From assembly GCF_003020115.1 (NCBI RefSeq), contig NZ_PYFX01000005.1, positions 372,001-436,000 on the forward strand: a DNA stretch of 64,000 bases. The letters run 5' to 3'. Origin of the DNA: Bradyrhizobium sp. MOS002. GTDB lineage: Bacteria; Pseudomonadota; Alphaproteobacteria; Rhizobiales; Xanthobacteraceae. This document shows, one piece after another, positions 15,743-35,093 of the stretch. The notes under the pieces are model-generated. The model ran no database searches, was not told the origin of the DNA, and was given only the letters and a program-made list of their open reading frames with translations. How positions within the stretch are numbered: position 1 is the first letter of the stretch; each line of letters opens with the position of its first letter. The translations under genes were made by a program, and so were the position numbers.

Positions 15743-15829
<87 letters not shown>

Positions 15830-19408: not shown

Positions 19409-19421
19409 GGATCGCCTCTGT

Positions 19422-19533: not shown

Positions 19534-19893
19534 CCAACGTGCCCCTTCTATCTGCTGAAACGAGCGCGGGCGTCGCCCATTCGAGCGACCCGTCCAGTTC
19601 CTTCCAGCACGGGTGAGCGTCAAGTCGAGCCCGGCACGGGGGAACTGGGCCACAGAAAGCCGCTCGATGTGGCCTTCACAGTTTTCTGCTAAAAATCCGG
19701 GGCTTTCGAGCGTGCTGTTCTGAAGACCGCAACCGGACGCCAGGGTCGGAACGCAGCCCGAACCACCTCCCAATCGACGGCTCCGGCTCCCCGAGACCAG
19801 GGGTCCGCACCCAAAAACGCTGCGCTGCAAAGGGGATGGCGTGTAGATTGTTCAATGGAGTGTTCAATCTGAACAGAACTCACGCTAACTCCT
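19534..19893. other. Gap without a supported gene
   Basis: About 360 bp between the res-like array and the ParB-like gene. Open frames here overlap other frames and show no recognisable motif. Probably holds the downstream end of the ParB-like transcript. Confidence 0.5.
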
Positions 19894-20664: not shown

Positions 20665-20951
20665 GTTCGGGGATGCAGAGCCCCACCCAGAGACCCCGTC
20701 CCGAACGGCGGCCTGTGAGAGCAGCCAACGAAGACCTCTGAGGGGGGACCCACCAGCCCACCCGTGGCACTAATAGTGGTGCGACGAGGCGTTCTAGGGG
20801 GAGAAGTGCAACCTAATCGGAGACGTCAACATCTTGTGGGTCAGCATCCGGCGTGATGGCGATTGCGACTTGCTGCCGGGTACTCCAGGTTGCCCGGGGC
20901 GCGTCGTCATTCGGTAAATGTCAGAGCGCCAGTGACAGGGGGAATACCGCG

Positions 20952-21539
20952 ATGTCGATTTCGGGGGCGTACTACGTGTACATGTTGAAGGACCCGCGAA
21001 CGTCACCGGCCAAGCCGTTCTACGTCGGCAAGGGCGTTGGCACCCGTGCCTGGGACCATCTGCTGTATCCAGATGACACGCTCAAAGGGAGGCGCGTCGC
21101 GGAGATCAAGGGGGCCGATCAAGATGTCTTGGTGACGTTGATCAGCGAGGATTTGTCAGAGACGCAGGCGCTTCGGATCGAAGCGGAGCTGATTGCGGCG
21201 CTCGGAACGGAAGCCTCTGGCGGGCTGCTAACCAATTCTGTTCTGCCTTCGGGGCGGAACGGAAAGAGCAGGCCAAACCTTACGGTGCCAATGGGAGCGC
21301 CTGAAAAGGCTCAGCTTGGACTGACGCTCCTCAAGGGTGCAGTTCTGGAACTTGCTCAAGCAAACTCCAAGGGGATCACCAATTCCGAAGCATGCCACGC
21401 GCTGGGTTTGCACAGTAACTACGGGGGAGGAAGCAAGGACTATCTGAGCTGGAGCGTACTCGGCTTGCTGATGCAGGAGGGCCGACTGAAGCGAATGGAC
21501 AAGCTCGGCAAGGGCCGCCACGTCGCTCAGGTCCGTTGA
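20952..21539 (+). CDS. GIY-YIG nuclease-domain protein (COG3680-like)
   Basis: 195 aa. The N-terminal GIY-YIG core is AYYVYMLKDPRTSPAKPFYVGKGVGTRAWDHL, with the YVY...YVGKG signature and the conserved arginine, and an acidic residue in ETQALRIEAELIAALGT as the metal ligand candidate. This spacing resembles the COG3680/LEM3-type GIY-YIG group. The C-terminal half (about residues 110-195) looks helical, with no named domain. It lies 80 bp upstream of vsr on the same strand and so may be part of the restriction module. Active-site identity is an inference from the motif. Confidence 0.78.
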   Translation: MSISGAYYVYMLKDPRTSPAKPFYVGKGVGTRAWDHLLYPDDTLKGRRVAEIKGADQDVLVTLISEDLSETQALRIEAELIAALGTEASGGLLTNSVLPSGRNGKSRPNLTVPMGAPEKAQLGLTLLKGAVLELAQANSKGITNSEACHALGLHSNYGGGSKDYLSWSVLGLLMQEGRLKRMDKLGKGRHVAQVR

Positions 21540-21619
21540 GCTGGGTACAGCAGTCCACAAGGCTTTGCAGCCCGATGGTGCTCCTGTATCCTCGTAGGGT
21601 GATTTGCGGTTGGTGAGGC

Positions 21620-22024
21620 ATGGACACACTGACACCGGCAGGGCGCAGCGAGCGCATGTCGCGCGTCAAGAACAAGAATACCGCCGTGGAGTGGCGCGTC
21701 AGGCGGCTCATTCACGGGCTCGGGTATCGCTACCGGCTTCATCGGACGAACTTGCCAGGTAAGCCCGATTTGGTCTTCGCGTCGCGCCGGAAGGTGATCT
21801 TCGTGCATGGTTGTTTTTGGCACATGCATTCGGCCTGCAAGCTGGCCCGGATGCCGAAGTCTCGGCTGGAGTTCTGGCAACCCAAGCTGGAGAGGAACCG
21901 GGAGAGAGACCGGCAAGTGCAGTGTGATTTGAAGAAGTTGAATTGGGAGGCGATGGTGATCTGGGAGTGCGAACTTCGTGACGAAGAAAAGCTCGCCGGA
22001 CGTATCCATGCCTTCCTTGCTTGA
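21620..22024 (+). CDS. vsr: Very short patch repair endonuclease
   Basis: 134 aa Vsr, which nicks 5' of the T in T:G mismatches left by deamination of 5-methylcytosine. Signatures: MSRVKNKNTAVEWRVRRLIH, GKPDLVFASRRKVIFVHGCFWHMHSACKLARMPK (metal-binding Asp in the PDLVF motif and the GCFWH box), KLERNRERDRQV and AMVIWECEL. The gene ends 16 bp before the ATG of the cytosine methyltransferase, the usual pairing of a C5 methylase with its repair enzyme. Confidence 0.94.
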   Translation: MDTLTPAGRSERMSRVKNKNTAVEWRVRRLIHGLGYRYRLHRTNLPGKPDLVFASRRKVIFVHGCFWHMHSACKLARMPKSRLEFWQPKLERNRERDRQVQCDLKKLNWEAMVIWECELRDEEKLAGRIHAFLA

Positions 22025-22039
22025 GGGGTGGGGGGAAGC

Positions 22040-23254
22040 ATGCTCAAGGCGGTTGAACTGTTCGCTGGCGCAGGCGGGCTCGGAATGGGCATCGCGTTGG
22101 CGGGGTTCGAGGCGCTGGCCGTGGTGGAATGGGACCGCTGGGCTTGCGACACGATTAGGGAGAACGGTCAACGCGGCTACCCCCTTGTGAAGGGTTGGCC
22201 GCTCTTCGCTGGCGATGTGCGGTCATTTGATCTCGGCACTCTCCCGGTCGGCATTGATCTGGTTGCTGGCGGACCTCCCTGTCAGCCGTTCTCAATGGGC
22301 GGCAAGCATCGCGCACACGATGACGATCGGGACATGTTCCCCACGATGGTGGATGTTGTTCGGAGACTGCAGCCCCGAGCGTTCATAGTCGAGAATGTGA
22401 AGGGCCTGACCCGGCCCACATTCGCCAATTATTTTCAGTACATCCTTCTTCAGTTCGAGTTCCCCGAGGTCGCCCGGAAGCGCGACGAAGAGTGGGCCGA
22501 TCACCTGAAGCGCCTGCAGCGACAGAAGACCTCGGGCCGGCGGACCGGACTGAGCTACAACGTCGTTGCGACGCTCGCGAACGCCGCGAACTTCGGAGTG
22601 CCCCAGCGACGAGAGCGCGTGTTCATCGTCGGATTTCGCGAGGACCAAGATGTCAAATGGTCCTTTCCCAAAGAAACGCACTCGGCTGATGCGCTGATGG
22701 TCGATCAATGGGTGACCCAGGACTACTGGGAGCGTCATCGCATTGGCCGCAAAGCCCGGCCCCCCATGCCGCCGTCGCTTGCTGGACGGATCGAGGAGCA
22801 GCGACAGCTAAACCTACGCGCCAATGTGGTACGCGCTCCTTGGGTCACCGTGCGCGATGCCATTCAGGGCTTGCCCGACCCGGAGCGTCTTCGAGGAGAA
22901 GCGCGCTACCACAACCATCGCTACCAGTCGGGAGCACGCTCGTATCCCGGTCACACAGGCAGCCCTCTCGATTTGCCTGCGAAAACTCTGAAGTCCGGCG
23001 TTCACGGTGTGCCGGGCGGCGAGAACATGATGGTAAGGGACGACGGGACGGTGCGCTACTTCACCGCCCGAGAGGCCGCACGACTGCAAACGTTTCCCGA
23101 TGGTTACGTGTTTCATGGTGCGTGGAGCGAGATCATGCGGCAACTGGGTAACGCGGTCCCAGTGGCTCTGGCTCGAATAGTGGCCGCTAGCGTCGCTGAA
23201 AAGCTGTTGCAGGCCGACATGCTCAGACAGGTCAGAGCGGCGGGCCGGGCGTGA
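22040..23254 (+). CDS. DNA (cytosine-5-)-methyltransferase
   Basis: 404 aa C5 methyltransferase. Motif I is ELFAGAGGLGMGI, motif IV with the catalytic cysteine is VAGGPPCQPFSMGG, motif VI is FIVENVKG, motif VIII is FGVPQRRERVFIVG, and motif X is MRQLGNAVPVALA. ATG at 22040 has a GGGGAAGC ribosome site; an upstream in-frame ATG at 22028 is less well placed. The target-recognition region lies between motifs VIII and IX. The stop overlaps the GTG of the Eco29kI-like endonuclease by 4 bp, so the pair is translationally coupled. Confidence 0.95.
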   Translation: MLKAVELFAGAGGLGMGIALAGFEALAVVEWDRWACDTIRENGQRGYPLVKGWPLFAGDVRSFDLGTLPVGIDLVAGGPPCQPFSMGGKHRAHDDDRDMFPTMVDVVRRLQPRAFIVENVKGLTRPTFANYFQYILLQFEFPEVARKRDEEWADHLKRLQRQKTSGRRTGLSYNVVATLANAANFGVPQRRERVFIVGFREDQDVKWSFPKETHSADALMVDQWVTQDYWERHRIGRKARPPMPPSLAGRIEEQRQLNLRANVVRAPWVTVRDAIQGLPDPERLRGEARYHNHRYQSGARSYPGHTGSPLDLPAKTLKSGVHGVPGGENMMVRDDGTVRYFTAREAARLQTFPDGYVFHGAWSEIMRQLGNAVPVALARIVAASVAEKLLQADMLRQVRAAGRA

Positions 23255-23898
23255 GCGAGTTCACCCCTTACAATCCACTGGACAAGCGAAATCTCGCCGC
23301 AAGCGTCGCGGAGGCGCTTTTAGAGCGCAAGCCTCGTCCACTCGGCGATGTTCCGAGGTTCGATGGGGCTGGCATCTACGCGATCTACTATTTCGGCGAT
23401 TTCCTAGCCTACGCAGCGATTGCCGCCGCCAATTCAAAGGGTGAGTTGACGGTGCCGATCTACATCGGGAAGGCCGATCCTGCTGGCGGCCGGAAGGGGG
23501 GTGGCGGGCTGGACAGCGAGCCTGGCGAAGCACTCTGCAAAAGGGTGCGCGAACATGCGAGGAGCGTCCGAGGCGTAGACAACTTGAACATCGAGCACTT
23601 CGCCTGTCGCTTGTTGGTAGTTGAAGAACAGTGGATCGGGCTCGCGGAGGCGCTGCTTATCGCCAAGTTCTCGCCTGTCTGGAACACGCTGGTTGACGGG
23701 TTTGGCAACCATCCGCCGGGCAAGGGGCGACATGCTGGCATGAAGCCGCGTTGGGACGTGCTGCACCCCGGGCGGCCGGGCTTCGACCAGTTACAGCCGA
23801 GGGCCGAAAACGCCCAGCAGATCGCAGACGAGGTGGAGGCGTACCTGCGTTCGGTCGTCCCTCCGACACCTCCAAAACTGCTCGCCGGAGACGATTGA
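23251..23898 (+). CDS. Eco29kI-family type II restriction endonuclease (GIY-YIG)
   Basis: 215 aa starting at GTG 23251. The GIY-YIG core is GAGIYAIYYFGDFLAYAA with VPIYIGKADPAGGRKGG about 50 residues on, then KRVREHARSV. The C-terminal half has the Eco29kI-type features FACRLLVVEEQWIGLAEALLIAKFSPVWNTLVDGFGNHPPGKGR and WDVLHPGRPGF. Eco29kI cuts CCGCGG. The recognition sequence of this enzyme is inferred, not shown. It is coupled to the methyltransferase, forming a type II restriction-modification system. Confidence 0.9.
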   Translation: MSEFTPYNPLDKRNLAASVAEALLERKPRPLGDVPRFDGAGIYAIYYFGDFLAYAAIAAANSKGELTVPIYIGKADPAGGRKGGGGLDSEPGEALCKRVREHARSVRGVDNLNIEHFACRLLVVEEQWIGLAEALLIAKFSPVWNTLVDGFGNHPPGKGRHAGMKPRWDVLHPGRPGFDQLQPRAENAQQIADEVEAYLRSVVPPTPPKLLAGDD

Positions 23899-23948
23899 AC
23901 TCCCCAGTCTTCGTACCACAACCGCCATTGCGGGTCGGACACACGACT

Positions 23949-23956
23949 GGTACACA
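23949..23956 (+). promoter_or_regulatory. GGTACACA octamer near the right end of island 1
   Basis: Matches the two octamers next to the island 1 integrase (15896, 15909) and lies about 60 bp inside the right-hand att repeat, as arm-type sites usually do. Confidence 0.4.
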
Positions 23957-24018
23957 ACCGCTCATTGACGGCGAGAAATCCCAAGCGATTTCAACGATCA
24001 ACCTGTGTCCAGGTCCAA

Positions 24019-24035
24019 TCCTTTCCTGGGCACCA
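24019..24035 (+). repeat. Attachment site core, copy 2 (island 1 / island 2 junction)
   Basis: TCCTTTCCTGGGCACCA, identical to the tRNA-Leu 3' end. The preceding bases (CCAA) differ from the tRNA, so only the core was copied. It is not a tRNA gene. Confidence 0.9.
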
Positions 24036-24102
24036 TACTTTTCTGCATGCCAAACAAATCCAGATAGATAAGCCCGATCAGAGTGTTGCGTTGGCCCCGA
24101 CT

Positions 24103-24123
24103 GTGTAACAATGGGGTGTAACA
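24103..24123 (+). promoter_or_regulatory. GTGTAACA pair upstream of the island 2 integrase
   Basis: GTGTAACA at 24103-24110 and 24116-24123. The same octamer is at 34711-34718 and a partial GTGTAA at 34760, near the right end of island 2. These look like arm-type or autoregulatory sites of the island 2 integrase; inferred from position. Confidence 0.4.
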
Positions 24124-25782
24124 TTGCTGTTCAGGGTTGTTCGGCCGATGCGCCGGGACGGGTCTCAAAACAAGTGGTTCGCTCAGCGCATCCCCGCTGA
24201 TGTCCGCCGCAAAGTAATCGGTGTCGAACTCGCAATCCCGCTGGGCGATAGCTTCGTTTTCGTGACGCCCAGCGAGAGCACCCAAGCCATTCGTTTCTCC
24301 CTCCGCACTGCCGATCCCAGTGAGGCCAAGACGCTTAACGCCATTGCGGCGGCCTATCTGGAGGGCGTCTGGCAAGCTCTCCGCAATGATGCCCCCGTGC
24401 ATCTGAGCCACCGACAGGCGACGGCCTTGGCGGGCGAACTCTATCGCGTTTGGGCGGACAGCGAGAGCCGCGCCCGGAGTGTCGCCATGGTGCACACGCC
24501 CGGAGTTGGCTGGGCGCCGGATACCGACAGCCAGGACGAGCAGGAAGTGCAATGGGCGGCCGTTGTCGCGATGTGGGAGAAGGTCGGCAAGGATGGCGAC
24601 CCCAAGCACTTGGAGAAGCCGCTTGGCCCTATTGTGGACCGCCTCTTGCTGACCAAGGGCATTCGCCGCGTGGACAGCGAATCGCGCGCCATGTTGCTTG
24701 TCGCTTTTTGGATGGCTCTGCGAGACGCCTTCATGAGCCGTCAGCGCAATGCGGGAGGGGATTATTCGTCGGACCCCAAGGCCGCCCGCTTCCCGGACTG
24801 GCAGCCGCCTGAAGGTGCGCCAAAAGAGAAGCTGAAGCGCGGAACCCCCAAGCATTCCCTCACCGGGCTGGTCGAGGACTGGTGGAAGGAAGCCAAGCGG
24901 GCCGGTCGCAAGCAGAGCACCTATGAAAGCTATCGCAACTCGATGGCGCGACTGGTGACATTCCTGAAGCACGACACGGCGAGCCGGGTGACGCCCGAGG
25001 ACATCGTTCGCTTCAAGGACTACCGCGTGCAGAGCGGCGTGAGCCCCAAGACCGTGAAGGACAGTGACCTTGCGGGGATGAAGACCGTGTTTGGCTGGGC
25101 CGTGGTCAATCGCCGGCTGTCCAGCAATCCGGCCGAAGGGATCACCATCAAGGTCGGCAAGTCGCGCAAGCTCAGGCCAAAAGGGTTCTATGATTCCGAG
25201 GCTATTGCAATCCTGAAGCATGCCCGCGAGTTCGTGCCCGGCCGGGAAGCCCCTAAGCTGGCAGCGGCCAAGCGGTGGGTGCCGTGGCTATGCGCCTTCA
25301 CGGGCGCCCGCGTGGGCGAGATGATCCAGCTTCGCAAGGAGGACGTTCGGCGCGAGGGGAAGCTCTGGGTGCTGCATGTGACGCCCGAGGCCGGGCCGGT
25401 GAAAACGGACGAAGCGCGTGATGTCGTGCTCCATCGGCAAGTCATCGAGGAAGGCTTCTTGGCGTTCTTTGAGAAGGTGAAGGGCGGCTATCTGTTCATT
25501 GACCCCAAGGCCGGCGAGTTAGGCGTGCGCAACGCGGTGAAGACGGCGCGTAACAAGGTCAATGAGTTCGTGCGTGAGGTGGTGAAGGACAAGAACGTTG
25601 ATCCAAGCCACGGCTGGCGCCATCGCTTCAAGACTGTGGGCATTGATCAGGGCGTCGAGATGCGCGTTCTGGATGCCATTCAGGGGCATGCTCCGCGTAA
25701 TGTCTCGGAGGGCTATGGGGACGTCACCATTAAGGCAAAGGCGAACGCCATCGCAAAGTTCCCGTCCATCGATGTCTCATAA
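24124..25782 (+). CDS. Tyrosine site-specific integrase of island 2
   Basis: 552 aa, starting at TTG 24124 (MLFRVVRPMRRDGS), which aligns with the island 1 integrase. The core-binding domain spans about GLVEDWWKEAKRAGRKQSTYESYRNSMARLV. The two proteins share the VSPKTVKDSDLAGMKTVFGWAVVN region. Catalytic residues are R in AFTGARVGEMIQLR, H-x-x-R in HGWRHRF, the histidine of IQGHAPR, and the Tyr of SEGYGD. It sits about 90 bp from the att copy and points into the island, as expected for a tRNA-integrating element. Confidence 0.92.
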   Translation: MLFRVVRPMRRDGSQNKWFAQRIPADVRRKVIGVELAIPLGDSFVFVTPSESTQAIRFSLRTADPSEAKTLNAIAAAYLEGVWQALRNDAPVHLSHRQATALAGELYRVWADSESRARSVAMVHTPGVGWAPDTDSQDEQEVQWAAVVAMWEKVGKDGDPKHLEKPLGPIVDRLLLTKGIRRVDSESRAMLLVAFWMALRDAFMSRQRNAGGDYSSDPKAARFPDWQPPEGAPKEKLKRGTPKHSLTGLVEDWWKEAKRAGRKQSTYESYRNSMARLVTFLKHDTASRVTPEDIVRFKDYRVQSGVSPKTVKDSDLAGMKTVFGWAVVNRRLSSNPAEGITIKVGKSRKLRPKGFYDSEAIAILKHAREFVPGREAPKLAAAKRWVPWLCAFTGARVGEMIQLRKEDVRREGKLWVLHVTPEAGPVKTDEARDVVLHRQVIEEGFLAFFEKVKGGYLFIDPKAGELGVRNAVKTARNKVNEFVREVVKDKNVDPSHGWRHRFKTVGIDQGVEMRVLDAIQGHAPRNVSEGYGDVTIKAKANAIAKFPSIDVS

Positions 25783-25909
25783 GTCATCGCTGTCTGACAA
25801 GCCATAAGGGCCTGCGAACACGAGTGGGACCGCAACCCCGCCCCAAATCGGAAATTCGGACCGACGCCACTTCATAAGAAGGAGTGCGGAGACTGCCAGC
25901 GAGGACGCC

Positions 25910-26149
25910 TCAATGCGCGGCAACGTGTTCAATCTCGAAGCGAAGCACTACGCGGAGAATAGAGCGCAAGTCGTCTCGGACTTCAATCATCAAGATACGG
26001 ACCACCGAACCCGGTAACACGTCCTTGGCGAAATCTGCCATGGCTTCGGACGCCGCAATCTTGACCTGTTCAAAGGTGGCGATTTCCACCCCCTCAACGT
26101 CAGGGATGAAGTCGTCATTGTCGCGGGTATCGAAGTAGTAGCGGGCCAT
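25910..26149 (-). CDS. DUF6894 family protein
   Basis: 79 aa starting MARYYFDTRDNDDFIPDVEGVEIATFEQVKIAASEAMADFA, a pattern found in small proteins common in Rhizobiales. The ribosome site is GGAGG about six bases before the ATG at 26149. The function of the family is not established. It is divergent from the Crp/Fnr gene. Confidence 0.8.
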   Translation of the reverse strand: MARYYFDTRDNDDFIPDVEGVEIATFEQVKIAASEAMADFAKDVLPGSVVRILMIEVRDDLRSILRVVLRFEIEHVAAH

Positions 26150-26363
26150 GACAGAACCTCCGGGCAGCGGAGGCAACCAATGTCGTTACGACCAAGTTCC
26201 TAAATCCGCTCGGGGAAAGGCGATGAACCTTCCAGCGGTGTTTTACGTTGAAACTAGTGCCGCTTTCTGCGTTGATACCACATCACCGGCCGAGGCTTAG
26301 CCCGTAGGCGCCGGTGGCAGAGAGACCCGTTGCGCTCCCGCCTGCAAAGGAAGGGAGCGGTCG

Positions 26364-27131
26364 ATGCCGCACCAAGTGCTAATTGCGCGTTTGCTGGCCG
26401 GTGCCGGCTTGACCGAGCAGGATCAGGCGAGGCTCCGAAGCATGCCTCATACGAGTCGGACGTTCAAAAACCGGGATATCGTCCTTCGGCAAGGGGACAC
26501 GCCTGTTCAATGCGCCGTGGTGATGAGCGGCTGCCTGATACGTCAAAGGGTTGTGCGCGAGCGCAACCAGATATCGTCCTTCTACCTTCCCGGCGATATG
26601 CCTGATCTTCACACCTTGCATCTGCCTGTTATGGATCACGAGCTTTGCAGCGTGGGCACCTCCACCCTGGCATTCATACCGCATTCGCACCTCCGGCCGA
26701 TGCTCATCGACTTTCCGGGCCTAACCAATGCCTTGTGGCGCGAGACTCTTGTCCATGCAGCGATCCACCGCGAATGGGTCGAAAATCTCGGCTCGAGGAG
26801 AGCACTTCCGAGAGTCGCCCATCTTTTATGCGAGCTTGCCACCCGTCTCGAGGTGGTGGGTTTACTGGAAGATGGCAGCTTTCGTCTCCCGTTCACGCAA
26901 CAGGACTTCGCTGAGGCCTGTGGTCTCTCGACCGTTCACATCAATCGGACAATCCAAGAGTTGAGGCGGATGAACCTCATTGAATGGCGGGGCCACACGG
27001 TGTCGCTGCTTCGACGAAAGGAGCTCGAAACGGTGGCCGACTTCAGCCCGGATTATCTCCATGCGTTTAAAGTCGCAGGTCCATTACACGGGCGCTCGAA
27101 AGGCATCTCCGACCAGTCAGCCATGGCGTAG
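26364..27131 (+). CDS. Crp/Fnr family transcriptional regulator
   Basis: 255 aa. The N-terminal cyclic-nucleotide-binding-like beta roll spans about residues 15-125 (FKNRDIVLRQGDTPVQCAVVMSGCLIRQRV). The C-terminal winged helix contains LPFTQQDFAEACGLSTVHINRTIQELRRMNLIEWRGHTVSLL (HTH_Crp type). It lacks the cysteine cluster of Fnr, so it is not an obvious oxygen sensor. The divergent DUF6894 gene may be a target. Typical of small rhizobial stress regulators; the ligand is unknown. Confidence 0.9.
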   Translation: MPHQVLIARLLAGAGLTEQDQARLRSMPHTSRTFKNRDIVLRQGDTPVQCAVVMSGCLIRQRVVRERNQISSFYLPGDMPDLHTLHLPVMDHELCSVGTSTLAFIPHSHLRPMLIDFPGLTNALWRETLVHAAIHREWVENLGSRRALPRVAHLLCELATRLEVVGLLEDGSFRLPFTQQDFAEACGLSTVHINRTIQELRRMNLIEWRGHTVSLLRRKELETVADFSPDYLHAFKVAGPLHGRSKGISDQSAMA

Positions 27132-27275
27132 GCGATAGGCACGTCGGTTTCGGTTTTATCCGTTGACGCGGCGCTTGCCCCGATTGTCCCGCAAACTGAT
27201 CTTCTCTCGTCTGCATGGCCCGGGTCCACAGGCGATCTCCCGAGACGTCCCGCCTTGCGCAACCAGACAATTTAG

Positions 27276-27701
27276 CTAGCGAGTGTTCGCATATTCGGTT
27301 GCTGCCGCCTTGCAAGCCGCCATCTTTGAGCAAGCTAGCACAGCGCCATCACGCAGGGCACTCTCATATGATTCGTCTTTGTGGTTCGCGTGAAGATAGG
27401 CCCCGAGCAGGGCGGCGGCAGCTAAGATCACAACATAACGAATTCGCTCAACGAATCGCTGCACTCGCGGGTCCTTCTTGAGGCGCTCCCCCGCGTAGAT
27501 GAATAGGGCGATGGCGCTGACGCCCGCGAGGGATATCCGAGGCGTCTCCGGGACACCCAGCGCTGTCATCCCCTCGTATTCGGCCCAGACGCTCAGCGCG
27601 ACAAAGCCCCATAGCGTCGCACCGATGCTAAGGATGTCAAATAGGTCCCTGATGGGCTCGGACTCGCGGGTGCGAGATGCGGCGGCTTCTGTGTTGGCCA
27701 T
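27276..27701 (-). CDS. Small membrane protein, unknown function (island 2)
   Basis: 141 aa from the ATG at 27701, which has a strong AGGAGG site 8-10 bases upstream. Hydrophobic stretches around ATLWGFVALSVWAEY, ISLAGVSAIALFIYAGE and YVVILAAAALLGAYL suggest three membrane helices. The C-terminal tail contains ALRDGAVLACSKMAACKAAA. No family is recognised. It is divergent from the XRE gene. Confidence 0.6.
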   Translation of the reverse strand: MANTEAAASRTRESEPIRDLFDILSIGATLWGFVALSVWAEYEGMTALGVPETPRISLAGVSAIALFIYAGERLKKDPRVQRFVERIRYVVILAAAALLGAYLHANHKDESYESALRDGAVLACSKMAACKAAATEYANTR

Positions 27702-27818
27702 ACTGCATTCCCTCCTGAAAGGCGGTCGCAATAGTAGACGATAGTCATCACGTCTCAACGGAAAAATGGGACTCATAGTCCGTAGACCGGGAGTCATCAT
27801 GACGGCCTTCTCCCACGG

Positions 27819-28061
27819 ATGGACGACGAGACAGGCATCGTTGACGTGGTGGCGGCGGCCGTGCGGAAGGCTCGTAAGGGACTGGGGCTGTCCCAAGAGG
27901 ATTTGGCCCTAGAGGCGGGGCTTGATCGGACCTACGTCAGTCAGGTGGAGCGGGGCACCCGTAACTGCACCATCATCGTCCTGGCCCGCCTGGCTCGTGC
28001 CTTGAAGACGACCCCTGACCGGTTGCTTGTCCCCCACAAGAGGACCCGGGGTCAGGCCTGA
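27819..28061 (+). CDS. XRE family helix-turn-helix regulator
   Basis: 80 aa single HTH_3 domain: VRKARKGLGLSQEDLALEAGLDRTYVSQVERGTRNCTIIVLARLARALKTTPDRLL. This is the cI/Cro/SinR-like helix arrangement over nearly the whole protein. It is a likely transcriptional repressor of island functions, with the target unknown. The ATG at 27819 lies in a region divergent from the small membrane protein gene. Confidence 0.88.
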   Translation: MDDETGIVDVVAAAVRKARKGLGLSQEDLALEAGLDRTYVSQVERGTRNCTIIVLARLARALKTTPDRLLVPHKRTRGQA

Positions 28062-28172
28062 ATCTCGTCCGGTGACAGGCAGGTCACTTTTAGCACCGGA
28101 CCTCAGGTTAGTCCGAACAGGACCGTTGATTTAGCTCAATGACCGCTGTCGTCCTCTTGCCAAGCCTTTGGC

Positions 28173-28304
28173 ATGAGTGAGCCTGAGCCCGAGAAACGTT
28201 CGACGCCCAAGCCGACGCGCATGGAGGAGGCTCGACGCATCATCGAGGAGTATATCGATGACCTCCGCGCGATCATCAGGAAGCTGCGTCAGGGGTTAAA
28301 CTGA
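28173..28304 (+). CDS. 43-aa charged micro-ORF
   Basis: ATG at 28173 to TGA at 28302-28304. The peptide starts MSEPEPEKRSTPKPTRMEEA and continues RRIIEEYIDDLRAIIRKLRQ, GLN. The N-terminus is Pro/Glu-rich and the C-terminal half is an amphipathic helix. It follows the XRE gene on the same strand by about 110 bp and could be coded in the same transcript. It is too short for a family match; codon use looks coding, which is the main support. Confidence 0.45.
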   Translation: MSEPEPEKRSTPKPTRMEEARRIIEEYIDDLRAIIRKLRQGLN

Positions 28305-28391
28305 GACCGCCTTGGTCCGCGCACATGGTTCGGCCCTATGGAGGAGACCAAACGGTTAGTCTTAGGGGCTGTCCTTTGAGGGGGCCATGTA

Positions 28392-28529
28392 GGAGGGGTG
28401 GTGGTCACTCACCCGAGCTTGGAGGTGACCCTTCAGGGTTGGTGAAGGGTGACCCTTAGAGGCCGCACTAGGGGTGACAATGGAGGAGGGGTGGTATCAC
28501 TCCCCCAACTTGAAGGCAGCCCTTACAGG
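28392..28529. repeat. Imperfect long direct repeat, possible iterons
   Basis: A copy of about 45 bp at 28392-28437 (starting GGAGGGGTGGTGGTCACTCA) recurs at 28485-28529 (starting GGAGGGGTGGTATCACTCCC) with about 80 percent identity. Between them GGTGACCCTT occurs twice (28424 and 28449 areas). It lies between the XRE/micro-ORF unit and the 3' end of the polymerase-like gene. No coding sense. Confidence 0.6.
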
Positions 28530-28622
28530 CCCCCTGAGACGGACCCTCTAAGCTCTAACCCTCCGAGTTTCCCCCCCATAGCTTCCTCCTCCATTAGCGG
28601 AGGCATAAGGGTTAATTTTGCT

Positions 28623-29924
28623 CTAAGTATCTGGTATCGCGGGCAAAAAATCTATGGAGACAATCGCGCAGGAAGATCCCGTAGCCGTGGTGAAAGCAGC
28701 CTGCATCGCGTCCTCCGCAACGTAGGCCTTCGATTCCGCGACCAGCACCGCGTCATGGAGCGGAAGAGCGGTGACCCCAATGCTCGCGAGATGCGTGATG
28801 ATCCCGATCAGCATGTCGCTTTCGATGCGCATCAACTGAAAGCCCAGCCCGGTGCCGAACAAATGAGCGATAGACGCATGGCGCGCGGCTAACATCTTGA
28901 TTGCGTGCCGGAGCTTCGTGCCCGAGGGAAAGTGCTGAAGCGTGTCCTCCGGCCAGTTCCGCAACGGACCGTCCGAAAACAACATCGCGTTCATCAGCCG
29001 TTTCCAGCCATCACGCCCGGAGCCGTCACCGGCTACATCATATATGTCACCTTCCGGCTGCGGCTGTCCCGCCCTTACGTATGCGAGGCGCGGAAAGAGC
29101 TGCCTGTAATCGACATCGGCAATTCGCTCGCCATTAATCCGAATGCGCTCAAACCGCTCGGCTCGTTCCATGCCCATCCAGAAACCGCCAGCGAGCCTGC
29201 CTCCGTGCTGCCAATTGTCGTTATTGAAGATACGCCGAAGAGAGCGGCGATAGGGCGCGATGACTTGGCCATCCCTCCCTAAAGAAAGGCCGGTGTTTTG
29301 ACCGGTCACCTCGATATCCGCGCTGCGCAAAAACTCATTGATGCGCCGCATCTGCACCGCAAGCTGGCGGGTCTTGGCTGTCTCCGCGAAGGCAATCGTG
29401 GCCGCTCGCCCGTCATCGTCCTTGCCTTCCTTCAATATGATCAGAGCGCGGGCGTCGATTTGCTCAACGCTTCGCCACTCGGGTGGTGCCAGCGGAAGAT
29501 GCTGAGCGAGCGTTGCGCTTGGTCGAATGAGCGACGGCACCCGCATTCTAGCGGACAGCTTATATCCCCTTTGCTCCTCTGTGATCAGGCCAAGCGATGC
29601 GAGCCCATCTAATGCGGATAGGAAGTGTTGGCCGTATACCGGGTCGGCGCCACCATCGCCCCGCCAAAGAAAGCCGTGCGACCGGGGCACCGCGAGTTTG
29701 GGGCCGGACTCGATCGCGCTGAGTAGGATTAGGTTGCAGGCCAGCGCTTCGACGGCGAGGCCGAACTTCTCCATGTCCGCCTCTTTTCGCGCTCGCTTCC
29801 TCGGCCCGGTATTGGCCTCGTGCAGCAACAGCGCATCGCGCAAACGTTGAACCGCACCGGAAAGCTCGGTCGTCTTGGCCCGGAGCAGTGGATCGAACCA
29901 CATTATGTTGGGTCTTTTCGTCAT
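28623..29924 (-). CDS. Protein with motifs resembling a family A polymerase palm (island replication protein?)
   Basis: 433 aa from the ATG at 29924; the frame is open to 29972. Residues about 1-60 are charged and helical, and 100-140 look like a winged helix (FLSALDGLASLGLITEEQ). The C-terminal half carries polymerase-like motifs: RIRINGERIADVDYRQLFPRL (motif A, Asp272), GRDGWKRLMNAMLF (motif B, R304/K308/N312), and ALPLHDAVLV (motif C, H390-D391). This spacing resembles the palm of DNA polymerase I and T7 RNA polymerase. The protein lacks an obvious exonuclease or thumb. I infer a mobile-element replication polymerase; the fold must be tested. Neighbours on the same strand are a Cys/His protein and a serine recombinase. 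Confidence 0.55.
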   Translation of the reverse strand: MTKRPNIMWFDPLLRAKTTELSGAVQRLRDALLLHEANTGPRKRARKEADMEKFGLAVEALACNLILLSAIESGPKLAVPRSHGFLWRGDGGADPVYGQHFLSALDGLASLGLITEEQRGYKLSARMRVPSLIRPSATLAQHLPLAPPEWRSVEQIDARALIILKEGKDDDGRAATIAFAETAKTRQLAVQMRRINEFLRSADIEVTGQNTGLSLGRDGQVIAPYRRSLRRIFNNDNWQHGGRLAGGFWMGMERAERFERIRINGERIADVDYRQLFPRLAYVRAGQPQPEGDIYDVAGDGSGRDGWKRLMNAMLFSDGPLRNWPEDTLQHFPSGTKLRHAIKMLAARHASIAHLFGTGLGFQLMRIESDMLIGIITHLASIGVTALPLHDAVLVAESKAYVAEDAMQAAFTTATGSSCAIVSIDFLPAIPDT

Positions 29925-30043
29925 GGGGGCGTGAGGCGCGTGTTGAAAATGACCTCCCCGAACCCTCGACATGCACGCACTGCTTCATTCCGATCAGATA
30001 GCTCGTGCGAATGCTGCGCCTTGCGATTTCCTCCGGGCATGTA

Positions 30044-30832
30044 TCAGCTCGCCGCGCGGGGCCGCCCGTAGCGCTGCCGATGGGCCAGGACGCCCGCGAC
30101 ATGCTTCTCCACGACCAGTTCAAGGCTTGGGGGCTCCAACATTCGGCCCATCTCCCGCAAGACACGCCCGGTGCTCTTTGGATAGACGTGCATTTCCGTC
30201 CGCCGCTTTCGGCCCTGATGATCTTCGACCTCCCAGATACGGTGTGTTCCTGAGGCCAGTCTCTGAATAGCCTTTGCGATCTGAACGGTCCGAAACTCCC
30301 TCGTCCGGGGGGCCGTCGTGTCGGTCCTAGTCAGGGCAGAGACAGCGAGGACGATGGAGACGATGCGCTGCGGAGGCACGCCTTCAACGCGGAGCCGCGC
30401 CAGTCCGATCTTGGCTCGCTTCGTGGCGGACATCCCTTTGAGACGCGTCGCGAGCTCCACCGGGCCGGCATCCTCTAGGGCCCGCCCCATGTCCGCAATC
30501 GCGGCGGCGATGAACTTATCGTTGGCTGCCCGAAGGCCTACGTACGCGGTTGCTGCCGTGATGAATGGCCGCAACTCGGATGCCTTGAAGCTCGGCCGCC
30601 AATAGGACCCATGACGCTGCCGGTGCTCAACGTGGCGCCTACAGTGGTGAGGGGCGAGGCCTTGACGGGCTGCCTTCATGGTCTGACGCCCGCAGCCGGG
30701 AATAGCGCATTTGGCTGATGCTGCGAGCGGCCCCAACCGGATGTTCTCCTTCAGGGCCGCCCGCCGTTTCGCCCGCTTGCCGCTAGGCTGCAGCACTGGA
30801 CGCACCTTGGCTTTGCACCCGGTACTTCTCAT
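30044..30832 (-). CDS. Cys/His-cluster (putative zinc-binding) protein of island 2
   Basis: 262 aa, function not recognised. Residues about 42-75 contain CAIPGCGRQTMKAARQGLAP and then HHCRRHVEHRQRHGSYW, with C, C, H-C and H-x3-H positions that would suit one or two zinc ions, a small DNA- or RNA-binding module. The remainder is largely helical and basic (RLKGMSATKRAKIGLARLRV, VEDHQGRKRRTE). The start at 30832 overlaps the end of the upstream gene by 50 bp. It may be translated from the same mRNA as the polymerase-like protein about 120 bp downstream. Confidence 0.6.
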   Translation of the reverse strand: MRSTGCKAKVRPVLQPSGKRAKRRAALKENIRLGPLAASAKCAIPGCGRQTMKAARQGLAPHHCRRHVEHRQRHGSYWRPSFKASELRPFITAATAYVGLRAANDKFIAAAIADMGRALEDAGPVELATRLKGMSATKRAKIGLARLRVEGVPPQRIVSIVLAVSALTRTDTTAPRTREFRTVQIAKAIQRLASGTHRIWEVEDHQGRKRRTEMHVYPKSTGRVLREMGRMLEPPSLELVVEKHVAGVLAHRQRYGRPRAAS

Positions 30833-31577
30833 GCACCGAATCTGCCAGTTGGAGCGCGACTCGCAAGAGCATCTCGTAATCCACCAACGTCAGGTCGGTC
30901 GATGGCAGTACGGAATCGTCCTGAAGCTGGGAGCCGTATTGCCTCTCCAATTCTCGCCTGAAGATGCCTAGCGCGAACTGAATGATATCCTCGCGGCCCT
31001 TGGAGACATCTCGCGTTTTTTGGCCGCGCTTGCGGATAAGGTTCTTGCCCACCCAGTAGAGCCGGATGCGGCGGCAATCATGGTGAGCATTGTCATAGTG
31101 CTTCGTATCCCCCCAGATCGGCGTGTTGGCAATCATGCGATGCAGATTGATGTTCTGCCGCTTGTTGGAGCCTGCGAAGGCTGCGTAAAACCACTCGCCC
31201 ATATTCGAGCGGTCTAGGACGATGCGCCCGCCCGACAACTCCAGCAACAGCAACACAACGAAATACCAAGGGTCAAAGTGACGAGGATTCTCTGCCTTCG
31301 AATCCTCGATAAGGACTGATACTGTCGGCGACTCGATGCCATCTACGCCGTGCGCATATGCTGCCTCGAGAAGGGTGCTGGATGGAAAACGGGCGGCGAG
31401 CAGGGGAGTGACATCGGGCAAGGTTTCTCGGTTGCCTTGCACAAATGCCTCCTCTTGATCGAGATAGGTCAGACAAACGCTAAGAGCTTCCGCAATTCGT
31501 TCGTCGTGCTTGTCCGGTGCTACGTGTTGGTTGGTCATTTCCTCATTCCACAAGTCATGATGCGGCGTTCCTCTCAT
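30783..31577 (-). CDS. Hypothetical protein, island 2
   Basis: 264 aa from the ATG at 31577; an ATG at 31538 (MTNQHVAPDKH) is an alternative. The middle part has FDPWYFVVLLLLELSGGRIVLDRSNMGEWFYAAFAG, and INLHRMIANTPIW and CRRIRLYWVGKNLIRKRGQ follow. It looks globular with a helical C-terminus, with no recognised family. Its 3' end overlaps the start of the Cys/His-cluster gene, pointing to an operon. Confidence 0.6.
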   Translation of the reverse strand: MRGTPHHDLWNEEMTNQHVAPDKHDERIAEALSVCLTYLDQEEAFVQGNRETLPDVTPLLAARFPSSTLLEAAYAHGVDGIESPTVSVLIEDSKAENPRHFDPWYFVVLLLLELSGGRIVLDRSNMGEWFYAAFAGSNKRQNINLHRMIANTPIWGDTKHYDNAHHDCRRIRLYWVGKNLIRKRGQKTRDVSKGREDIIQFALGIFRRELERQYGSQLQDDSVLPSTDLTLVDYEMLLRVALQLADSVHEKYRVQSQGASSAAA

Positions 31578-31694
31578 GAGAATACGCCCCGCTTCATGTA
31601 GGAATTCGCGGCCTAGTTTGCGAGAATTCGCCCATGGAAAACTCCAAATCGAGCACGAAAATTATTCGAGAGGCAGACTCGTTTTCGTTCGCGA

Positions 31695-32405
31695 CTATGG
31701 CCTCCTTGCGAGCCGTGCTTCGATCAGCGTGACCTGTGGTGCTGACCACTTGGCTCCACCCCTTGCCGTGGGGATGCTGTGCTCGGTCAGTGTTCGTGCA
31801 ATCTCGGTGGGTGACGTGATGCCCTTAGACCGGAGCTTCATCAGCAATGGGGCGATGTCCGCTGCTCGTCTGTCAGCAAGCCGGGATTGCTCCTCTCTTC
31901 CTCTCGCCTGTGCGTCACTGGACAGGCTCCCCCCTCGGTGTCCCCCAAGCCGTTGCCCCCGTGCCTTCGCTGCCGCAAGGGCTGCCTTCGTGCGTGCAGA
32001 GATCAGCCCTGCCTCTAGCTCCGCCACTGCGGCCATCTGTTGAAGCATGAAGCGCCCGGTGGGCCCCTCAATAGCCGGGAGGTCAGCGAAGCGCACGTCA
32101 ACCCCTGCATCTAGCAACCGCTCCAAGAAGCCCACCGAGCGTGTCAGGCGGTCAACCTTTGCGACCACAAGGGTTGCCCGGTGCAGTCGTGCTGAGGTGA
32201 GCGCCTCGTCTAGGGCCGGCCTATTGTTGCGCTTACCGCTCTCCACCTCGGTGAACTCAGCGATGATGCTGGTGGGCCCATCACCTACTGCCTTCGCCAC
32301 GGCGGCTCTCTGTGCATCGAGACCCAAGCCGGAGCGGCCCTGCTTCGGGGTCGATACGCGATAATAGGCTACGAACTTGCGCTTCACGGTTTTTTTCCCT
32401 CTCAA
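31695..32405 (-). CDS. Serine recombinase (small resolvase type), island 2
   Basis: 236 aa. The catalytic domain has FVAYYRVSTPKQGRSGLGLDAQ, with the nucleophile Ser18 (RVS motif), VVAKVDRLTRSVGFLERLL and the helix E MLQQMAAVAELEAGLISARTKAALAAAKARG. The C-terminal helical part contains LMKLRSKGITSPTEIARTLTEHSIPTARGGAKWSAPQV. Similar to resolvase-family recombinases of phage and islands that lack the long zinc-ribbon domain. It is the second recombinase type in this island besides the tyrosine integrase. Confidence 0.9.
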   Translation of the reverse strand: MRGKKTVKRKFVAYYRVSTPKQGRSGLGLDAQRAAVAKAVGDGPTSIIAEFTEVESGKRNNRPALDEALTSARLHRATLVVAKVDRLTRSVGFLERLLDAGVDVRFADLPAIEGPTGRFMLQQMAAVAELEAGLISARTKAALAAAKARGQRLGGHRGGSLSSDAQARGREEQSRLADRRAADIAPLLMKLRSKGITSPTEIARTLTEHSIPTARGGAKWSAPQVTLIEARLARRP

Positions 32406-32731
32406 TGGTGGCCCGCGAAAAACTTAGTCAACGAGCGTTGTCACCATATTTTTCGGAGGAATCGTCCCGCAAGAGGGGGCGCATGAGTCAAATGGACTCA
32501 GGCGATTCGGGAGGGATGGCGCGCGGTTTTGCAGGCGGGGAGCGTGATGCTGGCCGCACGAGGCGCAGAACCGTCGGACCGTGGACACAGGGCTGAACGA
32601 TACTTCAGAAATTGAAGGGGACCATGGGGGGGAAAGTTCGCAGCCGTCGCCACGAGGTCAAGTCTTAAATTTGGGACCCCAAACCGAAAGCGACCGGGGA
32701 CCGAACGGCCAACGGATCGGGGCCGTGATCA
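32406..32731. other. Gap without a clear gene
   Basis: About 325 bp between the serine recombinase start and the DUF3644 gene stop. A short ATG frame at 32516 (24 residues, MARGFAGGERDAGR...) has a GGGAGGG just upstream but no other support. It probably contains the promoter of the recombinase gene. Confidence 0.5.
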
Positions 32732-33928
32732 TCATACGTAGCGGTCTTTGTGCTCTTGGCAATGAGCCCTAACGCGGGTGAGCCAAGAGTCAAACCAAAC
32801 CCATGTATTGGGGTAATCACCCGTTCTTCCAAATCCCTTTGCGGGATTCTTGGCGTCTAACTCCTGCCAAAGAACCGTATGGGCGTGCTGTCCAAATTTC
32901 TGAAAACCTTCGTCGCGCATCATTTTGACGATCTGCGACGCGGTAAAGCGGCGCTTGTCCACTTCTTTAAGCAGCACGCTATTGATCTTTCGGCCCTCTG
33001 CGGAGTCAGGCCTAACGAATTCGACTGCCACATCAGCTTTAGATGCACGATTGCCTGTCTTCGGGATGAAGGCAACGCGATATGCAAATCGCGGGTCAGC
33101 CTGCTGTTCTTCCGTTAGGGTCTGATGAAACGCATCCATCATGGTCTCAATGTGCTGGGGCAGATCGCTCGCCTTCTTGAGGATTGAGCGCTGGTCGGCA
33201 CTGAAGGTGACAAATTGGAGTGCTATAGGTAGCCGCCGCTCTAATCCAAATTGAGCTCCAAACAGCGATTTCATAGATTCGTTAAAGTTGATGCAGCAAG
33301 CCTGAAGCTTCGCGCTGACGGCGTCGTCTATTCGGTTGGTGGATCGATGTTCGATCTCGTGACGAAGCGATAGCAGAAACTCTAGATTAGCAATCGCTCC
33401 CTTGGGCACGGGACATCGCGCGTGACGCAGACACTTCCCCAGCTCCCAATAGCAATCTTCTCCCTGCTTGGTCTTCTTTACCGTGCCGTCCGCCTCAATA
33501 TAGCGATAGTCAATTCTCTCCCGGCGAAACCACGCATGCAAAAGATAGGTCCATGCAATGATGCTGGTTACGATGAAGAGCTCGGCGCGAAAAGTAAGCC
33601 CGGCGCTGTTGAAGATATGAACCGCAGCAATCATCGCCTCGCGAGCTTTGATCAGCAACTCGTCGCCTCTCAAACTCAATCCCGTCTGCGGGTCGATGTC
33701 AGGCCATGTCGCTATAAATTCCTCTAGCTCCGCCTCGCTCGCTGCTTTTACCAGCTTGTGCTTTTTCTCCGTTCTGATCTCGCCAATTGCGCGATGGTTG
33801 ATCGAACGCGTCGGGCGGGTGAAGTATGCCAGTATGTCTTGATCGTTCGAGCCGGCTTTTACGAGCATCGCCTTAATCAAAGCGACTTCCCACCTCTCCA
33901 GCCGATTGCCCCGCTTGCGGATGGCCAT
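32732..33928 (-). CDS. DUF3644 domain protein
   Basis: 398 aa. Residues about 1-55 look like a DNA-binding module (LERWEVALIKAMLVKAGSNDQDILAYFTRPTRSINHRAIGEIR). The DUF3644 part follows with LLIKAREAMIAAVHIFNSAGLTFRAELFIVTSIIAWTYLLHAWF, and later LEFLLSLRHEIEHRSTNR, whose R-x4-6-H resembles the HEPN nuclease motif (RHEIEHR). Proteins of this type often occur in accessory defence contexts. The function here is inferred. It is the most upstream gene of the minus-strand set of island 2. Confidence 0.75.
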   Translation of the reverse strand: MAIRKRGNRLERWEVALIKAMLVKAGSNDQDILAYFTRPTRSINHRAIGEIRTEKKHKLVKAASEAELEEFIATWPDIDPQTGLSLRGDELLIKAREAMIAAVHIFNSAGLTFRAELFIVTSIIAWTYLLHAWFRRERIDYRYIEADGTVKKTKQGEDCYWELGKCLRHARCPVPKGAIANLEFLLSLRHEIEHRSTNRIDDAVSAKLQACCINFNESMKSLFGAQFGLERRLPIALQFVTFSADQRSILKKASDLPQHIETMMDAFHQTLTEEQQADPRFAYRVAFIPKTGNRASKADVAVEFVRPDSAEGRKINSVLLKEVDKRRFTASQIVKMMRDEGFQKFGQHAHTVLWQELDAKNPAKGFGRTGDYPNTWVWFDSWLTRVRAHCQEHKDRYV

Positions 33929-34779
33929 ATCTTCCCCCCAGCTTCAGTAAGCAGATTCGCGACGGCCAGCCAGTATACGTTCGCCGTAGGATTGTAGTCT
34001 TCCGGAAGACACCGGGGTCTTACTAGAGGCGGCACGAGCTAAAGCGCGAGCGAACCCCTGTGATGACTAGGTAGCGTCAAGGGCGACTGAGCGGTGGCTA
34101 AGCTAAAGTCGCCGGTAGCGCTGGAAACCGCCTTCGCGGCCTACACTCTGGATGGGATTTTTGGGCGAAGGTGCGGGGAGGGTTTACGGCGCGGGTAATT
34201 GCAGGCGAATGTCCGCCACCTCACTCAAATGGGGAGCCGCGCGGATCAGTATTTCGCTTGGGCTCGATAGATTGGCTGGCAGTCTATCTATCCGCATGCA
34301 TTGGGGAAAAGCGGGATGGCCACAGGAATCCGGCCAGCCGGCGTGGACTCTCGGAACACGAGGCACCACCATGCTCCTGCGAGTCGGCTAGCTGATTCGT
34401 ATGTGGCGGCAGGGCCAATCTCTCTGCCAAGGTTGATGTGGCCCCGCCCCACTGGCGATCCAAGTGCCTCGAACAGGAGCTACTGGACCATTCAAACGGC
34501 TCGTTGGGAGAAATCTCTTCGGGCCGTTTGTTTTTCGAATCGAGATTCATCCGCATCCCGCGAGTTGCAGCGTATGCAACAACGCAGAAGCCTACAATAC
34601 GGTTTGTATCGCAACCGCATCAACCATCGAATGATCGTTGGACAACTTTGGAAAAAGTTCTTTCCAAGTCGAGACCCAACCGGAGGGATCATCGAGTGCA
34701 ATACAGCACTGTGTAACAAGCCAATCGAGGGCTTGAAAAATATTAGCAAAATCAATAGGGTGTAAGCTAGGCCAGCGAA
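33929..34779. other. Gap without a supported gene, right end of island 2
   Basis: About 850 bp ahead of the third att copy. No frame shows a recognised motif. It carries GTGTAACA at 34711 and GTGTAA at 34760 (candidate integrase arm sites) and a weak IR around GATAGATTGGCTGGCAGTCTATC at 34266. Confidence 0.6.
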
Positions 34780-34796
34780 TCCTTTCCTGGGCACCA
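34780..34796 (+). repeat. Attachment site core, copy 3 (right end of island 2)
   Basis: TCCTTTCCTGGGCACCA, identical to the last 17 bases of tRNA-Leu(CAG), again preceded by AA as in copy 2. Confidence 0.9.
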
Positions 34797-34849
34797 CCTC
34801 CTACTCAAGCGATTGAAATCGCTTTTGCAGGGAATTTGAGCTGCTGACC

Positions 34850-35030: not shown

Positions 35031-35093
35031 GCCGAAGCCGTCGTCGCGATGTGGGAAAAGGTCGGTAAAGCTGATGACCCCAAGCGCCTAAGA
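35031..35093 (+). pseudogene. Fossil fragment of a tyrosine integrase
   Basis: AEAVVAMWEKVGKADDPKRL matches the AAVVAMWEKVGKDGDPKHLE segment of the island 2 integrase, with near-identical DNA (GTCGCGATGTGGGAAAAGGT). It stops about 5 bp before the stop codon of the next gene. It is a leftover of a third integration. Confidence 0.7.

What the first reader, a model, noticed from the sequence alone, without database searches (positions are those of the whole stretch)
28623..29924. Island gene with family A polymerase-like palm motifs, possibly a mobile-element replication polymerase
The C-terminal half carries an ordered set of motifs: ADVDYRQLFPRL (motif A, Asp272), R304-x3-K308-x3-N312 (motif B-like), and ALPLHDAVLV (motif C, His390-Asp391). 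Order and spacing resemble family A polymerases, where motif A Asp and motif C His-Asp hold the metals. The N-terminus may be a winged helix, and no exonuclease domain is visible. Next to it are a Cys/His-cluster protein, an unknown protein and a serine recombinase. A self-sized polymerase in a tRNA-integrated island could mean the island replicates its own DNA. I recall no named family for this protein.
Basis: partly seen in the sequence, partly recalled or inferred. Interest (0 to 1): 0.75.

Follow-up and report, generated by a model that had tools for sequence, protein, structure and literature searches.

The report
Island-borne divergent family A polymerase
A small gene on a mobile island in a soil bacterium encodes a stripped-down relative of DNA polymerase I, of a type described so far from phages and of unknown job, and beside it lies a zinc-finger gene that we found only next to such polymerases.

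Summary
ORF 28623-29924 (-) has the motifs at the stated residues. In 51 family members, this one included, Arg243, Asp272, Lys308 and Asp391 are invariant; Arg304 and His390 are kept in 50. An AlphaFold2 model (pLDDT 91.5) matches family A polymerases, DNA and RNA alike (VIA Z 12.6-14.0). But the family has a name: divPolA2, described in 2024 from phages, function unknown, and PHROG 4756.

New here is an alphaproteobacterial branch on chromosomal islands. A zinc-finger gene (30044-30832) was found intact only beside the polymerase, 7 of 7 places in 198 genomes. An island at the same tRNA-Leu site with a 96% identical integrase carries versions of polymerase, zinc-finger and third gene only 34-43% identical.

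Replication of the island is not shown; one sister island has no polymerase. Best guess: a two-protein, primase-like enzyme working like CcPol-MP of SCCmec, though not a member of that family. RNA polymerase, defence gene and repair polymerase remain open.

The parts
28623..29924 (-). pol: divPolA2-type family A polymerase-like protein, 433 aa (codons: R243 29196-29198, D272 29109-29111, R304 29013-29015, K308 29001-29003, H390 28755-28757, D391 28752-28754)
30044..30832 (-). zfC: zinc-finger-like protein (C42, C47, C64, H67 conserved), 262 aa, partner gene of pol
   Evidence: 7 of 7 intact places beside pol
30783..31577 (-). unk264: protein of unknown fold, overlaps the start of zfC; found in 6 of 61 loci
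31695..32405 (-). small serine recombinase (PF00239), first gene of the same-strand run SerRec-unk264-zfC-pol
32732..33928 (-). cargo: DUF3644 protein, matches candidate defence family PDC-S19
24124..25782 (+). tyrosine integrase of the island
26364..27131 (+). Crp-family regulator in the island
27819..28061 (+). Xre-family repressor-like gene of the island chassis
24014..24036 (+). attachment repeat, left end of the island that holds pol (91% identical to the tRNA-Leu copy)
34775..34797 (+). attachment repeat, right end of the island (87%)
15743..15829 (+). tRNA-Leu (cag), target gene; its 3' end 15808-15830 is the first attachment repeat of two tandem islands

Best explanation
The gene encodes a catalytically intact, minimal family A polymerase of the divPolA2 kind (palm plus shortened fingers, no exonuclease recognised, its own N-terminal domain). 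Shown by computation: fold, conserved catalytic residues, place on a tRNA-Leu island, pairing with zfC. Inferred: the protein works together with the zinc-finger protein zfC, which holds or positions the template, and the pair starts new strands without a primer (a primase-like act) on the island's own DNA when it is excised or enters a new cell. The serine recombinase of the same gene run would resolve the products. This is how CcPol-MP is thought to work on SCCmec elements, with a different partner protein. The identity part is about 0.95 likely; the confidence given is for the whole statement including the function.
For: Catalytic residues invariant or nearly so in 51 members. Model pLDDT 91.5, pTM 0.89. 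Foldseek: the 50 PDB rows listed are family A DNA polymerases, best E 1.6e-4. VIA: apPol Z 14.0 (243 residues, 3.9 A), yeast mitochondrial RNA polymerase Z 13.4 (243, 3.5 A), T7 DNA polymerase 13.1, T7 RNA polymerase 13.0. Profile-profile match to PolA, E 1.8e-4, against P 0.077-0.79 for five neighbour-gene clusters as controls. zfC: 7 of 7 intact places in 198 genomes lie on the same strand as pol, matches 52-767 bases apart. Within 6.5 kb a tyrosine integrase cluster in 24 and a serine recombinase cluster in 32 of 55 loci. Precedent: an MGE-borne A-family polymerase plus small partner is a proven primase, with serine recombinases and restriction-modification cargo nearby.
Against: No helicase was recognised among nine of the island's ten ORFs scanned, whereas the CcPol-MP type sits beside one. 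The zfC model is helical, not an OB fold. In 9 of the 16 pol-bearing genomes no intact zfC was found. Sister island L127 has no pol or zfC. Serine recombinases also sit near islands without pol (L127 and L131; tandem island 1), so they look like chassis genes. The residues CcPol keeps against ribonucleotides (E710, F762) are mostly lost here: E in 1 and, by spacing from the Lys, F in 2 of 51. As single sequences T7 RNA and DNA polymerase gave no convincing profile match (P 0.13 and 0.19). No activity of a divPolA2 protein turned up in the papers searched (open-access library only).
Confidence: 0.4

Rival explanations
1. It is a DNA-dependent RNA polymerase: it transcribes island or phage genes, with its N-terminal domain or zfC reading the start site (in the boldest form a two-piece T7-like enzyme).
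For: Three positions lean to RNA polymerases (which marks are typical is recalled): Tyr/Phe two places after the Arg of GR (41 of 51), Ser/Ala/Gly instead of Glu after His-Asp (49 of 51), gate Glu lost (1 of 51). Fold scores tie between DNA and RNA polymerases. The profile match to 11 T7-like enzymes has E 4.9e-4. The authors of divPolA2 raise it too. Best VIA row for zfC is the T7 RNA polymerase N-terminal region 60-266, Z 6.7, 146 residues, 5.0 A, next row 4.8.
Against: The RNA polymerase gate Gly is present in only 5 of 51 and the Tyr of motif B in 1 of 51. Z 6.7 is below the tool's own noise level; Foldseek found nothing for zfC at E <= 0.001; zfC against 11 T7-like N-terminal domains gives E 0.34, like the controls at 0.11-0.83. 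The match of pol to T7-like enzymes covers 49 columns around motif C only.
Confidence: 0.2
2. unk264-zfC-pol is cargo, a defence system in which the polymerase makes a nucleic acid in answer to phage, not a part of the island's own upkeep.
For: The stretch with the unit differs between islands with 96% identical integrases, and pol and zfC are absent from L127. Near pol lies variable defence-like cargo: type I restriction (L080, L089), OLD/Gabija-like ATPase (L074), PDC-S19 in the window.
Against: No PADLOC model matches pol, zfC or unk264 below E 0.01. Relatives occur in many phage genomes, e.g. ICP1, up to 3 places per genome, which fits host defence less well. Block exchange also fits a replication module.
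Confidence: 0.22
3. It is a primer-extending repair or bypass DNA polymerase.
For: Proposed for divPolA2. No exonuclease recognised; shorter stretch between motifs B and C than in PolA; H, F or Y in 39 of 51 at the gate position.
Against: The commonest neighbour clusters are recombinases and zfC, not repair genes; the rarer clusters were not all annotated. The host has PolA.
Confidence: 0.14

Closest known systems
divPolA2 (Yutin et al. 2024, PMC11348598) / PHROG 4756
   Same: Same family: the A2 profile scores 115.9 to 165.1 bits on AUR84708 (the protein the paper modelled), Barba18A gp034, ICP1 ADX89057 and phage K354; T7 RNA and DNA polymerases are not hit. Palm residues kept, no exonuclease recognised.
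   Different: The paper searched Caudoviricetes. This member is chromosomal, on an integrase island, with a zinc-finger partner that was not found in the four phage stretches scanned. In the tree eight phage or viral-contig rows (ICP1, K354, Barba18A, AUR84708, L047-L050) are split off (97/97) from the other 44 rows, 37 bacterial and 7 viral contigs; several of the eight have long branches and their place is unsure.
PolA-SSB primases, CcPol-MP of SCCmec (Bebel et al. 2020; Rice 2023)
   Same: Mobile island, family A palm, small partner gene in the same run, serine recombinase, restriction-type cargo in relatives.
   Different: No helicase recognised; zfC is a helical zinc-finger-like model rather than an OB fold; small, not large, serine recombinase; gate residues differ; not recognised by the DNA_pol_A model.
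Single-subunit RNA polymerases (T7, mitochondrial)
   Same: Palm fold, GR-x-Tyr/Phe, His-Asp-Ser in 23 of 51 members.
   Different: 433 aa against 799-902 aa in the 11 compared; RNA polymerase gate Gly rare.
DNA polymerase I (PF00476)
   Same: Four motifs in register, fold.
   Different: No match to PF00476 at E <= 1 or in any of the 28 members of A2 at E <= 0.1.

Membership tests
divPolA2 / PHROG 4756 | Sequence homology to the named phage proteins | tested here: met
   115.9-165.1 bits on 4 of 4; 28 of 28 members of A2 match PHROG 4756
divPolA2 / PHROG 4756 | Palm with catalytic motifs A, B, C kept | tested here: met
divPolA2 / PHROG 4756 | No 3'-5' exonuclease domain | tested here: met
   433 aa, no exonuclease model in Pfam; by sequence only, the N-terminal part was not folded alone
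divPolA2 / PHROG 4756 | N-terminal globular domain unrelated to known thumbs | tested here: inconclusive
   Not folded or searched alone; in 26 of the 50 VIA rows the first aligned residue lies at 12-92, in 24 at 154-182, and what aligns in between is not shown
PolA-SSB primase (CcPol-MP) | A-family polymerase domain on a mobile element | tested here: met
PolA-SSB primase (CcPol-MP) | Partner with OB fold | tested here: inconclusive
   zfC model is helical with one hairpin; unk264 was not modelled
PolA-SSB primase (CcPol-MP) | Helicase in or beside the operon | tested here: not met
   None matched in nine of ten ORFs of the window's island (25910-26176 not scanned). Elsewhere a DEAD/DEAH gene lies two genes from pol beside a methylase on a Thioclava plasmid
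PolA-SSB primase (CcPol-MP) | Primer-independent synthesis | not testable with these tools
   needs purified protein
Single-subunit (T7-like) RNA polymerase | Palm fold with motif A and C aspartates | tested here: met
Single-subunit (T7-like) RNA polymerase | RNA-type residues: Gly at the gate, Tyr in motif B | tested here: not met
   Gly 5 of 51; Tyr 1 of 51; F277 and F316 in this protein
Single-subunit (T7-like) RNA polymerase | N-terminal promoter-binding domain | tested here: inconclusive
   zfC resemblance Z 6.7 only, no sequence support; pol's own N-terminal domain not searched alone
Pfam DNA_pol_A (PF00476) | Match to the family model | tested here: not met

The most novel reading that the evidence does not exclude
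pol and zfC together form a new two-subunit, primer-independent family A enzyme: either a further kind of mobile-element primase beside CcPol-MP and piPolB, with a zinc-finger template binder in place of an OB protein, or a split T7-like RNA polymerase whose template-binding domain is a separate zinc-finger protein.
Probability: 0.3. Interest if true: 0.78.

Novelty: new variant of a known kind. Interest (0 to 1): 0.52.

Why it matters
divPolA2 proteins are in 244 of 50,697 phage records by one query, including the cholera phage ICP1, yet the paper that named them leaves their job open. A bacterial branch with a dedicated partner gene, and natural islands with, without and with a different version of the unit, gives a tractable setting (Bradyrhizobium) in which the function can be tested. 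If the pair primes or transcribes, it shows another way in which family A enzymes learned to start strands.

Tried and rejected
Sequence search of the PDB with P0001 and with the A2 profile: nothing meaningful (best E 1 and 0.11). NCBIfam and PADLOC for pol: nothing below E 0.01. Pfam DUF5955 at E 0.0045 is below its cut-off and occurs in 1 of 28 members: rejected.

Scan of viral contigs with P0001 alone: no relative; with alignment A1: 12.

Split RNA polymerase idea for zfC: one VIA row at Z 6.7 but no Foldseek hit at E <= 0.001, best PDB sequence match E 0.26 and no profile support. Kept as speculation only.

A res site beside the serine recombinase: short repeats in five regions, no shared pattern seen, inconclusive.

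Serine recombinase as a specific partner of pol: rejected. It is enriched near pol (32 of 55 loci, against 166 PF00239 matches in about 171 Mb of 21 genomes, my sums from the table) but is also present without pol (L127 and L131; tandem island 1).

PHROG 4756 in 398 genomes of the phylum gave 25 positives; one, G248, is the host PolA itself (same place), so 24 of 398.

The loci are not independent: 12 of the 55 (L017-L028) are Bradyrhizobium copies 64-89% identical to the window's. From 34 loci, seven (L017, L018, L019, L023, L028, L032, L045) were left out of A2 as near-copies or for a stop in the match. Cargo proteins scanned were picked by me for size, not at random.

Full report
Observation. 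The reading frame 28623-29924 on the minus strand is open and encodes 433 aa. The named motifs are present at the stated residues. It has no Pfam match above cut-off, no NCBIfam match and no meaningful PDB sequence match, but matches PHROG 4756, unknown function, at E 3.4e-24.

Relatives were collected from 198 genomes of the same family (14 positive with P0001; 16 with the profile A2), from genome contigs (22 loci), viral contigs (12 loci) and the phylum (24 of 398 genomes after removing one host PolA). In the 28-row alignment A2 the invariant residues are N196, G242, R243, R257, D272, R304, K308, H390, D391 and M407. In 51 rows: R243, D272, K308, D391 51/51; R304 and H390 50/51; D293 47/51; N312 20/51. 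These are the positions of Pol I R668, D705, K758, D882, R754 and H881 (numbering recalled; register).

Fold test. The AlphaFold2 model from A2 has pLDDT 91.5 and pTM 0.89. D272 ends a strand and H390-D391 sit at the turn of a hairpin, as in a palm. The 50 Foldseek rows listed from the PDB are family A DNA polymerases; 12 have E <= 0.001 (best 1.6e-4) and TM-scores on the query are low, 0.22-0.35. VIA aligns 226-255 residues to apicoplast, bacterial and T7 DNA polymerases and to mitochondrial and T7 RNA polymerases, Z 12.6-14.0 in the 50 rows shown, so the fold does not tell DNA from RNA synthesis. Against predicted viral proteins the best matches are uncharacterised phage proteins (E 9e-22) and a Rheinheimera phage protein called DNA polymerase (E 7.9e-20). 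Profile-profile comparison with PolA (12 host PolA: P 0.0018, probability 15%; the PolA frames longer than 600 aa plus T7 DNA polymerase: E 1.8e-4, probability 48%, 210 columns) puts GR, motif A, R-x3-K and HD in register. Controls: five neighbour clusters P 0.077 to 0.79; T7 RNA and DNA polymerase as single sequences P 0.13 and 0.19; 11 T7-like RNA polymerases as a profile E 4.9e-4 over 49 columns at motif C. The sequence signal alone is therefore suggestive; fold and conservation carry the case.

It is a known family. Yutin et al. 2024 (PMC11348598; section 13 on two novel phage PolAs read in full; other passages) describe divPolA2 from barbaviruses and other Caudoviricetes: active-looking palm, no exonuclease, an N-terminal domain like no other, sometimes two or three paralogues per phage, role unknown (repair polymerase or RNA polymerase proposed). 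Our profile hits the protein they modelled and three others at 115.9-165.1 bits, and neither T7 polymerase. Phage searches with two distant relatives matched 125 and 244 of 50,697 records; P0001 itself only 3. One record (Pseudomonas phage vB_PsaM_M1) already names its copy DNA polymerase. A library search for 'divPolA2' found only that paper and its preprint (the preprint seen as a listing).

Which nucleotide? At the Pol I E710 position 51 members have H 20, F 15, G 5, Y 4, A 3, E 1, W 1, M 1 and one other; after His-Asp S 23, A 17, G 9, E 1, C 1; two places after the Arg of GR Y or F in 41; at the motif B Tyr position N 24, F 17, Y 1. So DNA-polymerase marks are lost, RNA-polymerase marks are only partly present. 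CcPol by contrast keeps E710 and F762 (passage of PMC7581432).

The island. Copies of the tRNA-Leu 3' end lie at 15808-15830, 24014-24036 and 34775-34797. In relatives G591 and G644 the tRNA flank joins the right flank directly with a 23-base and a 22-base overlap; the other three of five right-flank loci do not show it. So two islands stand in tandem, and pol is in the second (about 24,037-34,797). It holds a tyrosine integrase, Crp and Xre regulators, pol, zfC, unk264, a small serine recombinase and a DUF3644 protein that matches candidate defence family PDC-S19 at 1.6e-116. Island 1 holds Vsr, a C5 methylase and an Eco29kI endonuclease.

Neighbours. Among 55 loci a serine recombinase lies within 6.5 kb in 32, a tyrosine integrase in 24, zfC in 21. 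Of ten large neighbour proteins that I picked for PADLOC, two are type I restriction enzymes (L080, L089), one is OLD/Gabija-like (L074), two match weakly (L088, L078), and five have no match (two of L034, L039, L081, L033) (Pfam).

zfC. C64 is invariant and C42, C47, H67 are kept in at least 90% of 17 rows; helical model with one hairpin, pLDDT 83.2, no Foldseek match at E <= 0.001. In 198 genomes the zfC profile matched 9 places; 7 are intact (the TGA noted for G084 is the gene's own stop, L034 9135-9941), and all 7 lie on the strand of pol with matches 52-767 bases apart. The other two are a short broken piece (G091) and a weak match (G158, E 8.9e-4) (pol places). pol occurs at 18 places in 16 genomes, so it can do without a recognisable zfC.

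Exchange. L126 (genome G588) has an island at the same tRNA-Leu site with integrase 96% and Xre 96% identical, but pol 34%, zfC 43% and unk264 39%, in a tight run recombinase-unk264-zfC-pol. DNA similarity ends at window 28521, about 100 bases past the end of pol, and does not return before the right attachment repeat, so the differing stretch includes recombinase and cargo; that unk264, zfC and pol moved as a unit is inferred from their kept order. In the tree its pol joins L031 with 100/100 support, not the window's. L127 (integrase 89%) keeps a recombinase and unk264 but has no pol or zfC by profile. Of 60 genomes of the genus 6 have the integrase at E <= 1e-100: pol is present in G000, G588 and G622, absent in the stretch of G590, and G584 and G596 have only broken integrases, with no pol in the stretches fetched.

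Mechanism. The closest worked example is CcPol-MP (Rice 2023, PMC10061031: abstract, introduction, methods, results and discussion read; Bebel et al. 2020 seen as passages): an A-family polymerase that extends primers alone and primes de novo with its small partner, on islands with serine recombinases and often restriction cargo. The present pair resembles it in layout, not in partner, helicase or gate residues, so it is proposed as an analogue, not a member. Rice also raises second-strand synthesis after transfer and defence as possible roles; both apply here.

Verdict.

Noticed in passing
window 15831-24036: Tandem island 1 at the same tRNA-Leu: its own tyrosine integrase (15918-17471, 40% identical to that of island 2), a serine recombinase (about 18965-19399), GIY-YIG protein, Vsr, C5 methylase and Eco29kI restriction endonuclease.
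   Followed up: partly
window 35037-35085: Integrase scrap (86% identical over 49 bases to the island 2 integrase) outside the right attachment repeat, present also in relative G591 with an empty site: perhaps the scar of an older island.
   Followed up: no
L120:8986-10473: Cholera phage ICP1 hypothetical protein ADX89057 is a divPolA2 relative (146 bits).
   Followed up: no
G000:C8:4854-5495: A second, weak DNA_pol_A match (E 1.2e-4, below cut-off) in a 1042-residue open frame of the same genome; perhaps another divergent family A polymerase.
   Followed up: no
L032:7682-10477: In Bradyrhizobium australiense pol-like sequence is in two separate pieces about 2 kb apart.
   Followed up: no
window 32732-33928: DUF3644 protein, strong match to candidate defence family PDC-S19.
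   Followed up: no
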